From Thermoleophilia bacterium (GTDB lineage Bacteria; Actinomycetota; Thermoleophilia; Solirubrobacterales; 70-9), in assembly GCA_016650125.1 (NCBI GenBank), contig JAENWT010000019.1, positions 1 through 46,004 of the forward strand: a DNA stretch of 46,004 nt. The letters run 5' to 3'. This document shows positions 500 to 7,834 of the stretch, piece by piece. Under the pieces are notes generated by a model. The model was given only the letters and a program-made list of their open reading frames with translations. It had not been told where the DNA came from and did not search any database. Within the stretch, counting starts at the first letter, position 1; each line of letters opens with the position of its first letter. Position numbers and translations under genes: made by a program.

Positions 500-718
500 A
501 TGTTTGACAACGTCCCAAATGACGCCGCCGGGTACGTCATGGCGGCCTATATCTTCTTCCTGCTGATGGTCCTGATTTACATCGGCATCCTCGGCGCCAA
601 GTTCCAGCGGATCAGCCGCGAGATCGGCCAGTTGACCGACGAGGTCGAAGCCGGCAAGGTCGGCGTCAAGCCGCCAGCCGAACGGCCTGAGCCGGCCCGG
701 GAGGAGAGCAGTGTCTGA
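500..718 (+). CDS. CcmD-like small membrane protein
   Basis: A 72-residue protein with one hydrophobic helix (about residues 12-33), then a basic-acidic helix and a Pro/Glu tail. The size, the single N-terminal helix and the position right after ccmC fit CcmD, the small subunit that holds heme-loaded CcmC and CcmE together in system I cytochrome c maturation. The sequence is too short for a motif-based call, so the assignment rests on context. The ATG follows the ccmC stop with no gap and the 3' end overlaps the hemA start by 8 bases, which suggests translational coupling along the three genes. Confidence 0.7.
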   Translation: MFDNVPNDAAGYVMAAYIFFLLMVLIYIGILGAKFQRISREIGQLTDEVEAGKVGVKPPAERPEPAREESSV

Positions 719-2045
719 GCTGCTTGCCCTTGGCCTCTCCCACAAGACGGCTCCGCTGGAGCTGCGGGAACGGCTCGCCCTGACCGAAGGCCGCGCCGCC
801 GGCCTGATGGGGGAGCTGACCGACACCGACGACGTGCGCGAGGCGGCAATCATCTCGACCTGCAACCGCACCGAGCTCTACCTCGTGGTCGACGACTCGG
901 TCCAGGCTGAATCGGTAGCGCTCTCGTCCCTGTCCCGGGAGGCCGAGATCCGGCCGACCGAACTGATCAGCCACCTCTATTCACTGCGATCGAATGACGC
1001 CGCACGGCACCTCTACCAGGTGGCCGCCGGCCTTGATTCGATGATCCTCGGCGAGGCCGAGATCCAGGGCCAGGTCAAGCGTGCCTACGAACTGTCGCTG
1101 GTCGAAGGCGCCTCCGGTCCGATCCTCAACCGGCTCTTCCGAGGCGCGATCGCCGCCGGCGGCCGCGCCCGCAACGAAACCGCGATCAGCGAGAAGGGCG
1201 TGTCCGTTCCCTCGGTTGCGATCGAGCAGGCCCGCCGGGCGCTCGGCGACCTGAGCCGGCTGCACGCTGTGGTGATCGGCGCCGGCGACACAGCCGAACT
1301 GGTCGCCCGGGCACTGGTCCACCGGGGTACCGAGACCGTCTTCATCGCCAACCGCCACTACGACCGGGCGATCGGCCTGGCCGAGCGCTTCGGCGGCGAC
1401 GCGGTCCGGATCGACGACCTGCCGGCCCAGCTGGACGCGGCCGACATCGTGATCTCGGCGACCAACTCGCCCCACCACCTGGTCGGCAGCGACGAGCTCG
1501 CCGAGATCATGGCCGGACGGACGAAACGCCCGCTCTTCCTGGTCGACCTCGCGGTCCCGCGCGACATCGACCCCGGCTGCCGCGACATCGAAGGCGTGTC
1601 CCTCTCCGACGTCGACGACATCCAGAAGATCGTCGAACGCAATACGAGCGGCCGCCAGGCAGAGGCCCGGCTCGCCGAGCGCATAATCGAAGTCGAACTC
1701 GACCGGTTCGAGCGCTGGCTCGCTTCCCTCGAAGTGGTACCGACCGTGATCGCCCTGCGCGAGCGCTCGGACGAGATCGTGCGCCGTGTCATCGCCGAGA
1801 ATGACAACCGCTGGGAAGACCTCTCCGACTCCGACCGCCGCCGGGTGGAGACGATGGCCCGCGCGATCGCCAGCCGCATGCTTCACGAGCCGACCATGAA
1901 GCTCAAGGAATCGGCCGGGTCCGATGAGGCTTACGAAAACGTGAACACCCTGCGCGAGCTGTTCGGCCTCGATGTCGACACCTCGATCGAGGGCGATTCC
2001 GGCGCTTCGGTCACACCGATCCGCCAAAAATCAGAAGAGGGCTAG
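711..2045 (+). CDS. hemA: glutamyl-tRNA reductase
   Basis: Cytoplasmic enzyme that reduces glutamyl-tRNA(Glu) to glutamate-1-semialdehyde, the first committed step of C5-pathway tetrapyrrole synthesis. The 444 residues have the usual length. The catalytic domain carries STCNRTELY with the nucleophilic Cys51, His100 in the RHLYQVAAGLDSMILGE block, and GEAEIQGQVK near 114-123. The NADPH-binding Rossmann motif VIGAGDTAE is at about 188-196, and a helical dimerisation domain follows from about 310. The GTG start at 711 overlaps the upstream gene by 8 bases and follows a purine-rich GGAGAG site. hemC and the cobA-hemD fusion follow. hemB and hemL are not in the window. Confidence 0.97.
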   Translation: MSELLALGLSHKTAPLELRERLALTEGRAAGLMGELTDTDDVREAAIISTCNRTELYLVVDDSVQAESVALSSLSREAEIRPTELISHLYSLRSNDAARHLYQVAAGLDSMILGEAEIQGQVKRAYELSLVEGASGPILNRLFRGAIAAGGRARNETAISEKGVSVPSVAIEQARRALGDLSRLHAVVIGAGDTAELVARALVHRGTETVFIANRHYDRAIGLAERFGGDAVRIDDLPAQLDAADIVISATNSPHHLVGSDELAEIMAGRTKRPLFLVDLAVPRDIDPGCRDIEGVSLSDVDDIQKIVERNTSGRQAEARLAERIIEVELDRFERWLASLEVVPTVIALRERSDEIVRRVIAENDNRWEDLSDSDRRRVETMARAIASRMLHEPTMKLKESAGSDEAYENVNTLRELFGLDVDTSIEGDSGASVTPIRQKSEEG

Positions 2046-2050
2046 GCCTA

Positions 2051-2213
2051 GATGGCCGGACCCACGATTTCGCGGCGCCATGCACCCGGCGGGCGGCGCT
2101 GGGCGTCACCTGATGGCTCGAAGATGCCACCAGCATCCCCTTCGGCATCATGCAACGCCCATCATCCGCCCGCCACGCACCTGTCATCCACGAAAATCGT
2201 GGGACCGGCCATC
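2051..2213. repeat. 163-bp nearly fully self-complementary element between hemA and hemC
   Basis: The outer arms 2051-2072 and 2191-2213 are inverted repeats with one mismatch and one extra base over about 22 bp. Moving inward, the pairing continues: a 9-bp GC-rich match (near 2089-2097 and 2165-2173); 12 of 15 bases between 2101-2115 and 2146-2160; GATGGCTCGAAG (2112-2123) with CTTCGGCATC (2140-2149), which partly competes with the previous match; and an apical ATGC/GCAT hairpin around 2124-2136. Transcribed, it would fold into one long rod ending 2 bases before the hemC ATG, and it would pair the GGGA at 2201-2204, the only SD-like sequence there. It could be a MITE-like remnant or a structured leader. 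No coding ORF fits. Confidence 0.75.
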
Positions 2214-2215
2214 TG

Positions 2216-3076
2216 ATGCGCATCGCGACGCGGTCCAGCGCCCTCGCGCTGGCGCAGTCAGGAATCGTTGCCGATCAGCTGGGAGGCGCCGAGCTGATCA
2301 AGGCCGAGACGGATACCACGGCCGACGACAAGGAGCGCTTCGTCCGCGGCGTCGAGCGGGCCGTGCTGGACGGCGAGGCCGAGGCCGGCGTGCATTCGGC
2401 CAAGGACCTGCCCGGCGTGATGACTTCCGGCCTGGTGATCGCCGCGGTCCCGGACCGCGAGGACCCGCGCGACGCCTGGATCGGCCCGGGGACGAGCCTT
2501 GACGACGTGCCGGAAGGCGCCCGCGTCGGCACGGTCAGCCTGCGCCGCCGGGCCCAGCTCCTGGCGATCCGGCCGGACCTCGAGCCGGTCGCGCTCGAAG
2601 GCAACGTCGACACCCGCCTGCGAAAGCTGGAGGCGGGGGAAGCCGACGCGATCATCCTGGCCGTCGCCGGACTGAACCGGCTGGACCGCGCCGACCAGAT
2701 CTCCTTCGCCATTCCCCTTGGACAGATGACGCCGGCCGCCGGGCAAGGCGCGCTGGTCGTCCAGTCGAAGGCCGGCGACGACGAAGGCTTCCGGCAGATC
2801 AACGACCTCAAGAGTGAATGCGAACTCCTGGCCGAGCGGGCGGCGGTTGTCGGGCTCGGTGCGGATTGTTCGAGCCCGGTCGGCATCCACGCCCGCCACG
2901 AGGGCGAGCGCCTGGTGGTCGAAGGATTCGCCGGCCTGGCCGACGGCTCGGCCTGGGTCCGGGACCGGCTCGAAGGTGACCCTGCCCATCCGGAGACGGT
3001 CGGCACCGAGCTGGCGCGACGCATGTCCGTGGCCGGTGCCACAGAGATCCTTGAAACGGCGGCCGCGGCCGGATGA
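2216..3076 (+). CDS. hemC: hydroxymethylbilane synthase (porphobilinogen deaminase)
   Basis: Polymerises four porphobilinogens into hydroxymethylbilane. The ATG at 2216 was chosen because the family N-terminus (RIATRSSALAL) starts directly after it; an upstream in-frame start would fall inside the hairpin element. Seen: HSAKD with catalytic Asp64, EDPRDA at 82-87, the phosphate-binding SLRRR at 108-112, AVAGLNRL, and the dipyrromethane cofactor Cys218 in GADCSSPVG. At 286 residues it is short. The segment that in E. coli holds the mobile loop with Lys55 and GGKGLF is largely missing. The Arg of the family RGNV motif (E. coli Arg149) is Glu128 here (LEGNVDTRL). The 3' end overlaps cobA-hemD as ATGA. 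Confidence 0.93.
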   Translation: MRIATRSSALALAQSGIVADQLGGAELIKAETDTTADDKERFVRGVERAVLDGEAEAGVHSAKDLPGVMTSGLVIAAVPDREDPRDAWIGPGTSLDDVPEGARVGTVSLRRRAQLLAIRPDLEPVALEGNVDTRLRKLEAGEADAIILAVAGLNRLDRADQISFAIPLGQMTPAAGQGALVVQSKAGDDEGFRQINDLKSECELLAERAAVVGLGADCSSPVGIHARHEGERLVVEGFAGLADGSAWVRDRLEGDPAHPETVGTELARRMSVAGATEILETAAAAG

Positions 3077-7681: not shown

Positions 7682-7700
7682 GTGCGTCGGGCTTGGGTGT

Positions 7701-7809
7701 GGCGCGGGCATCCCTGTCCAGGTGCCTCGCTGTTGGATCAACCTGGGCGCAGCGCGAACGATTTCTCGTCCCGTCGACTAACCGCATCCTGGACAGGGAT
7801 GCCCGCGCC
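7701..7809. repeat. 109-bp element with perfect 22-bp terminal inverted repeats
   Basis: Bases 7701-7722 and 7788-7809 are exact reverse complements over 22 bp (GGCGCGGGCATCCCTGTCCAGG), with 65 bases between them. It lies between two convergent genes, where a terminator is expected, but the large loop and absence of T-runs fit a MITE- or REP-like non-autonomous element better. No flanking target-site duplication is obvious. No second copy is seen in the window. Confidence 0.7.
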
Positions 7810-7834
7810 GCGCCCCACGGCAATCCGATTCGTC

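What the first reader, a model, noticed from the sequence alone, without database searches (positions are those of the whole stretch)
2051..2213. 163-bp rod-like palindrome directly in front of hemC
The element is complementary over almost its full length, with a 22-bp outer stem and a neat apical hairpin, and stops two bases before the hemC start codon. It would hide the only SD-like GGGA. Either it is a MITE-like insertion tolerated in the heme operon, or it controls HemC translation or mRNA stability between the hemA and hemC parts of the transcript.
Basis: partly seen in the sequence, partly recalled or inferred. Interest (0 to 1): 0.6.

Follow-up and report, generated by a model that had tools for sequence, protein, structure and literature searches.

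The report
Mobile palindromic repeat before hemC
The hairpin in front of hemC is one copy of an apparently undescribed family of about 169-base mobile palindromic repeats, scattered through the bacterial class Thermoleophilia, that sit between operon genes without breaking them and keep their fold while their sequence changes.

Summary
It spans 2048-2216 (CTAG...CTGA) and is one copy of a family of about 169-nt rod-like palindromes. Covariance models found the family in 86 of 232 genomes of the order, at about nine places in this genome, and almost only in class Thermoleophilia. In relatives the hemA-hemC gap is -4 to 23 nt, so this is an insertion. One genome holds more than ten near-identical copies with unrelated flanks, so the family has been mobile. 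Abutting copies, and copies next to IS701-type insertion sequences, share one CTAG, pointing to a 4-bp target duplication. No transposase with these terminal repeats was found. One strand (antisense to hemA-hemC here) folds far better; 48 of 54 base pairs show compensatory changes. Between co-directional genes that strand is antisense in 51 of 66 cases, and many copies fit exactly between stop and start codons of essential operons (atp, ribosomal). Most likely effect (inferred): tolerated insertion, the rod keeping the hemA stop close to the hemC start.

The parts
711..2045 (+). hemA (glutamyl-tRNA reductase); stop codon TAG at 2043-2045
   Evidence: ORF; Pfam GlutR_N, Shikimate_DH, GlutR_dimer
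2048..2216 (-). the palindromic element (169 nt, CTAG...CTGA); structured strand is the minus strand
   Evidence: fold -117.9 kcal/mol, z -10.8; matches model R2 over positions 1-169, 81.7 bits, E 6e-15
2048..2051 (.). left CTAG, presumed copy of the target
   Evidence: sequence; CTAG ends in family copies
2050..2071 (+). left arm (terminal inverted repeat)
2123..2137 (.). core GATGCCACCAGCATC forming the apical hairpin, also present in a homologous copy of G100
2193..2214 (-). right arm (terminal inverted repeat)
2213..2216 (.). right end CTGA, presumed altered copy of the target; with TG it makes the hemC ATG
   Evidence: sequence; same CATCTGATG junction in other copies
2216..3076 (+). hemC (porphobilinogen deaminase)
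   Evidence: Pfam Porphobil_deam from residue 1; relatives align from residue 1

Best explanation
The element is a non-autonomous mobile palindromic repeat (about 161 nt between its CTAG ends) that inserted at the hemA stop / hemC start junction; it belongs to a family spread through Thermoleophilia. Shown: homologous copies, insertion relative to relatives, CTAG ends, spread of near-identical copies in one genome, a conserved strand-specific fold, an antisense bias in operons. Inferred: a transposase acting in trans pastes it into rare CTAG sites and duplicates the four bases. TAG of CTAG can serve as a stop codon and CTAG+TG or CTGA+TG as a start, so insertion at a stop/start junction leaves both neighbours intact. 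Also inferred: in the hemA-hemC mRNA the rod folds back and brings the hemA stop to within a few bases of the hemC start, so translational coupling can survive; the mRNA strand has A-C mismatches where the other strand has G-U pairs, which would make it a poorer RNase III target and explain why the other orientation is rarer.
For: Relatives have hemA-hemC gaps of -4 to 23 nt in 27 of 28 readable loci against 170 here. Three homologous 164-165-bp copies in G100. R1 hits in 86 of 232 genomes of the order, nearly all close to 169 nt; R2 finds further copies in this genome and 12 of 13 positive genomes of a phylum sample are Thermoleophilia. G049 has more than ten near-identical copies with unrelated flanks and contig breaks inside copies. 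Head-to-head copies on C8 share one CTAG; palindromes abutting IS701-type elements share one CTAG. Covariation: 94.8% of cells paired against 34-42% when slid, 48 of 54 pairs with double changes. Antisense 51 to sense 15, 49 to 14 after collapsing homologous sites. Exact fit between stop and start codons in 16 copies, most downstream genes confirmed by Pfam.
Against: No autonomous element or transposase with the terminal repeat ATGRTTGATTCC or ATGGCCGGWCC was found; the IS701-type elements have another terminal repeat and are absent from this genome and from G049. The window copy has CTAG on one side and CTGA on the other, so its own target duplication is not exact. Its sub-family is single in this genome. 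Fold-back coupling and the RNase III argument were not measured, and gene calls for the context statistics are heuristic.
Confidence: 0.85

Rival explanations
1. A regulatory element specific to the heme operon: the rod hides the hemC ribosome site, or sets hemA and hemC mRNA stability, in response to a signal.
For: It ends exactly at the hemC start and pairs the only GGGA. ERIC and Correia elements do affect stability of neighbouring transcripts (PMC2229807, PMC10969869).
Against: Relatives lack it at this junction; the same element sits before atp, ribosomal-protein, pdh and other genes; no Rfam match.
Confidence: 0.08
2. A mobile element moved as single-stranded DNA by an HUH (Y1, REP/IS200-type) transposase, which would explain why only one strand folds well.
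For: S strand folds better in 105 of 105 copies; CTAG next to the hairpin on both sides; net insertion would look the same as a 4-bp duplication.
Against: No Y1 transposase (PF01797) in any of the 15 copy-bearing genomes searched, this one and G049 included; the two positives (G044, G028) gave no element hit. IS701-type DDE elements in the same group use the same CTAG.
Confidence: 0.1
3. A domesticated structured RNA: the S strand is transcribed and has a cellular role, and the DNA repeats are its gene copies.
For: Strong covariation and conserved unpaired internal stretches; homologous resident copies in two species keep pairing through double changes (46 double changes and 22 broken against 6-11 and 80-91 when slid, both directions counted); G-U pairs kept on one strand.
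Against: No promoter seen at the window copy; S is usually antisense to its operon, so it would need its own promoter; template switching can perfect palindromes without selection; most genomes of the order gave no hit, so no essential role.
Confidence: 0.2
4. A one-off inverted duplication or chance palindrome, unrelated to other loci.
For: No DNA-level second copy in its own genome.
Against: Same length, terminal repeat and core in G100; R2 matches it over its full length with E 6e-15, although R2 was built with it included; R1 likewise.
Confidence: 0.01

Closest known systems
ERIC / IRU / RU-1 elements of enterobacteria (PMC2229807, PMC10969869)
   Same: short non-coding mobile palindrome, mostly intergenic and co-transcribed, transcripts fold into long stem-loops, orientation matters for effect
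   Different: 127 bp, TA ends, enterobacteria; here about 169 nt, CTAG ends, GC-rich, Thermoleophilia, fold conserved on one strand with covariation
Correia / NEMIS elements of Neisseria (PMC2229807)
   Same: hairpin-forming miniature insertion sequences next to genes; RNase III processing reported for them
   Different: about 107 and 155 bp, TA ends, terminal repeats of about 24 bp; other host; no sequence match tested
YPAL / RU-2 elements of Yersinia (PMC2229807)
   Same: 168 bp, not A+T-rich, palindromic, recently mobile
   Different: target duplications of 3-26 bp and no fixed end; here fixed CTAG ends
REP / REPIN with TnpA-REP (RAYT) (PMC3116915, PMC3733652, by title and abstract)
   Same: palindromic repeats with a fixed tetranucleotide tag, strand-specific hairpin
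   Different: 20-40-bp units tagged GTAG or CGTC; Y1 transposase absent here
IS701-type insertion sequences (PF13546) of the same family of bacteria
   Same: flanked by the same CTAG at both ends, abutting the palindromes and sharing one CTAG with them
   Different: terminal repeat TAGTGCTCYGKTAG, unlike ATGRTTGATTCC; about 1.45 kb with a transposase gene

Membership tests
MITE (miniature inverted-repeat transposable element), general kind | short, with terminal inverted repeats, no protein of its own | tested here: met
   169 nt, arms of about 22 bp; no ORF inside, only an in-frame ATG at 2150 that would extend hemC
MITE (miniature inverted-repeat transposable element), general kind | multiple dispersed copies | tested here: met
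   family copies in this genome and across the order; the window's own sub-family is single here
MITE (miniature inverted-repeat transposable element), general kind | target-site duplication and empty sites | tested here: inconclusive
   shared CTAG in abutting elements and one empty site with a single CTAC; at the window CTAG/CTGA, and no close enough relative for an exact empty site
MITE (miniature inverted-repeat transposable element), general kind | terminal repeats shared with an autonomous transposon | tested here: not met
   DDE_5 elements in 12 genomes have other repeats; other transposase families not searched
REP / REPIN-RAYT | GTAG or CGTC tag | tested here: not met
   ends are CTAG
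REP / REPIN-RAYT | Y1 (HUH) transposase in the genome | tested here: not met
   0 of 15 copy-bearing genomes
ERIC | 127-bp consensus with TA ends, enterobacteria and relatives | tested here: not met
   length 165-172, CTAG ends, Thermoleophilia; direct sequence comparison not made
Known Rfam RNA family | match to a curated covariance model | tested here: not met
   window: only a tRNA at gathering score; nine loci with family copies: nothing at E up to 1

The most novel reading that the evidence does not exclude
The family is a conserved structured RNA that spreads as DNA and is then domesticated at stop/start junctions of essential operons across Thermoleophilia; its fold, on the strand antisense to the genes, is kept by selection after insertion and tunes or insulates expression of the downstream cistron.
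Probability: 0.2. Interest if true: 0.8.

Novelty: new variant of a known kind. Interest (0 to 1): 0.56.

Why it matters
The small mobile palindromes best described so far are from enterobacteria, Neisseria, pneumococcus and a few others. This one is order-wide in a poorly studied actinobacterial class and has no Rfam entry. It combines three unusual things: a fold conserved on one strand only, CTAG ends that let it sit between a stop and a start codon without damage, and an antisense bias that grows with divergence. It gives a natural set of more than 100 insertions for asking how a 169-nt rod between two cistrons affects coupling and mRNA cutting, and it explains contig breaks in genomes of this group.

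Tried and rejected
DNA search for further copies in the own genome: only short matches. Terminal-repeat pattern in the order: most one-mismatch hits were lone matches without a partner arm; only the window and G100 gave true pairs. Genome-contig scan: one true hit (AVDCRST_MAG45, the G100 record); no full element in the other three. IS701-type transposase as direct partner: same target, different terminal repeat. HUH/Y1 transposase: absent from copy-bearing genomes. Phage carriage: 13 viral contigs hold the 16-mer; in the eight scored there was no model hit. Intrinsic terminator or sigma-70 promoter: none. In-frame ATG at 2150 inside the element as hemC start (308-aa ORF): rejected because the Pfam match and relatives begin at 2216. 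Empty sites: only one of four compared loci (G086:C5 against G038) was clean enough to read. Literature: no description of such a repeat in Thermoleophilia in the held library, which does not prove there is none; papers on IS701 targets did not settle the CTAG question.

Full report
OBSERVATION. The palindrome is real. The two arms match with two differences, and 0.01 such matches are expected by chance. The region folds better than every shuffle on either strand. I read the unit as 2048-2216: CTAG, then ATGGCC...GGCCAT, then CTGA, whose A starts the hemC ATG. The hemA stop (TAG, 2043-2045) lies two bases upstream. The minus strand folds 23 kcal/mol better than the plus strand (-117.9 against -94.5), because G-U pairs on it are A-C mismatches on the other. 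hemA, hemC and the downstream methylase/HemD fusion are confirmed by Pfam.

INSERTION. In relatives the end of hemA and the start of hemC overlap or are up to 23 nt apart in 27 of 28 loci where both genes could be read, against 170 nt here (the exception, L045, has a diverged hemC N-terminus). The closest relatives share about 70% protein identity, so the exact empty sequence cannot be read, but the extra DNA is specific to this lineage.

A FAMILY. No second copy of this DNA exists in its own genome. A distant relative of the same order (G100; the same contig appears in the public collection as AVDCRST_MAG45, an uncultured Solirubrobacterales bacterium) has three copies of 164-165 bp with the same terminal repeat and core. 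A covariance model from these four (R1) found matches in 86 of 232 genomes of the order, almost all full length and close to 169 nt. A second model from 38 copies (R2) finds in this genome C26, C13, C12, two abutting copies on C8, the window copy, one cut at a contig end (C14) and a short one (C8:112164); one more arm ends contig C5. The other palindrome of this window (7695-7815) is not hit, so the model does not simply report any long hairpin. In an even sample of 396 genomes of the phylum, 12 of the 13 with hits are Thermoleophilia, and the thirteenth is weak. The class name rests on the AVDCRST_MAG45 record plus the taxonomy look-up and the kinship labels of the tool.

MOBILITY AND TARGET. 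G049 carries more than ten copies that are identical or nearly so with unrelated flanks, and most of its lone arms sit at contig ends, as expected of a recent multi-copy repeat in a fragmented assembly. Of 105 copies, 34 have CTAG at both ends and most others have it at one end. CTAG is rare: 19 in this window against 146 expected from base composition. On C8 of this genome two copies lie head to head and share one CTAG. In G062 two IS701-type insertion sequences, each with CTAG at both ends, abut palindrome sequence and share one CTAG with it; G054 has a third such IS. In G038 the site that is filled in G086 has a single CTAC. These facts fit a 4-bp CTAG target duplication. The mobiliser is unknown: the IS701-type terminal repeat differs, and neither DDE_5 nor Y1 transposases were found in this genome or in G049.

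STRUCTURE. In a MAFFT alignment of 38 copies made without structure (A4), the RNAalifold structure is paired in 94.8% of cells against 34-42% when one side is slid; 48 of 54 pairs have double changes and no shuffle reaches any measure. Two cautions. The copies were found with a model that includes structure. And imperfect palindromes can be perfected by template switching during replication (general knowledge), which gives compensation without selection. Against the second as a full account, G-U pairs persist on one strand (mean 7.9 against 2.2; S more stable in all 105 copies) and unpaired internal stretches are conserved. The strand call itself leans partly on pairing, but the conserved unpaired sequence gives the same orientation.

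RESIDENT COPIES. Four pairs of copies lie at homologous places in two species. With the structure of one member applied to the other, in both directions, there are 46 double changes that keep pairing and 22 broken cells; sliding gives 6-11 and 80-91. The fold is therefore kept after insertion, whatever the reason.

CONTEXT. With heuristic gene calls for 105 copies, the structured strand is antisense to both neighbours in 51 and sense in 15 co-directional cases (p 1e-5; 49 to 14 after collapsing homologous sites), with 20 convergent and 10 divergent. The bias grows with divergence of the terminal repeat from the mobile consensus: 18:10, 14:4, 19:1; divergence may reflect sub-family as well as age. 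In 16 antisense cases examined the downstream gene starts within one base of the element end, as CATCTGATG, CATCTAGTG or CATCTAGATG and the like. Pfam confirms downstream genes such as ATP synthase gamma and epsilon, ribosomal proteins L6, L4, L1 and S3, a pyruvate-dehydrogenase-type transketolase, a penicillin-binding protein and CcmF. The hemA-hemC copy is one more case of this pattern.

MECHANISM (inference). The element is tolerated at such junctions because the CTAG ends supply or preserve a stop on one side and a start on the other, and because the rod folds back so that the terminating ribosome finds the next start close by. The antisense bias would follow if the G-U form in an mRNA is cut by RNase III or blocks expression while the A-C interrupted form is not. 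None of this was measured. A hemC-specific switch is unlikely, since relatives lack the element and the same element precedes many unrelated genes.

COMPARISON. In kind it works like ERIC, NEMIS or YPAL elements (PMC2229807, PMC10969869). It is not a member of these by length, ends or host, is not a REP/REPIN by tag or transposase, and has no Rfam match. As a MITE in the broad sense it meets the tested features except a known autonomous partner; the target duplication is well supported for the family and inexact at the window copy.

Noticed in passing
window 7695-7815: A second, unrelated long palindrome (28-bp arms, 93% complementary, 65 nt between; fold z -6.3) in the convergent gap between a beta-lactamase-fold gene and a helicase. 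Not hit by model R2.
   Followed up: partly
L136 (G000:C8) 1336-1668: Two elements head to head sharing a single CTAG; the two belong to different sub-families.
   Followed up: yes
L183 (G062:C29) 1345-2968; L194 (G062:C65); L192 (G054:C203): IS701-type insertion sequences with terminal repeat TAGTGCTCYGKTAG and CTAG at both ends; two of them abut palindrome sequence.
   Followed up: partly
L134 and L320 (both G056:C37): Two copies on one contig in a ribosomal-protein region, one directly before rplF (after a gene ending like rpsH) and one directly before rpsC.
   Followed up: partly
L210 (G049:C81) about 1049-1125; L215 (G062:C115) 1968-2049: Shortened derivatives of 77-82 nt that keep both terminal repeats but lack the middle.
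   Followed up: no
window, whole: CTAG is strongly under-represented (19 against about 146 expected from base composition).
   Followed up: no
L051 (G013:C200), contig end: A same-genus contig breaks off inside DNA similar to the window element (86% over 37 nt), probably another copy.
   Followed up: partly
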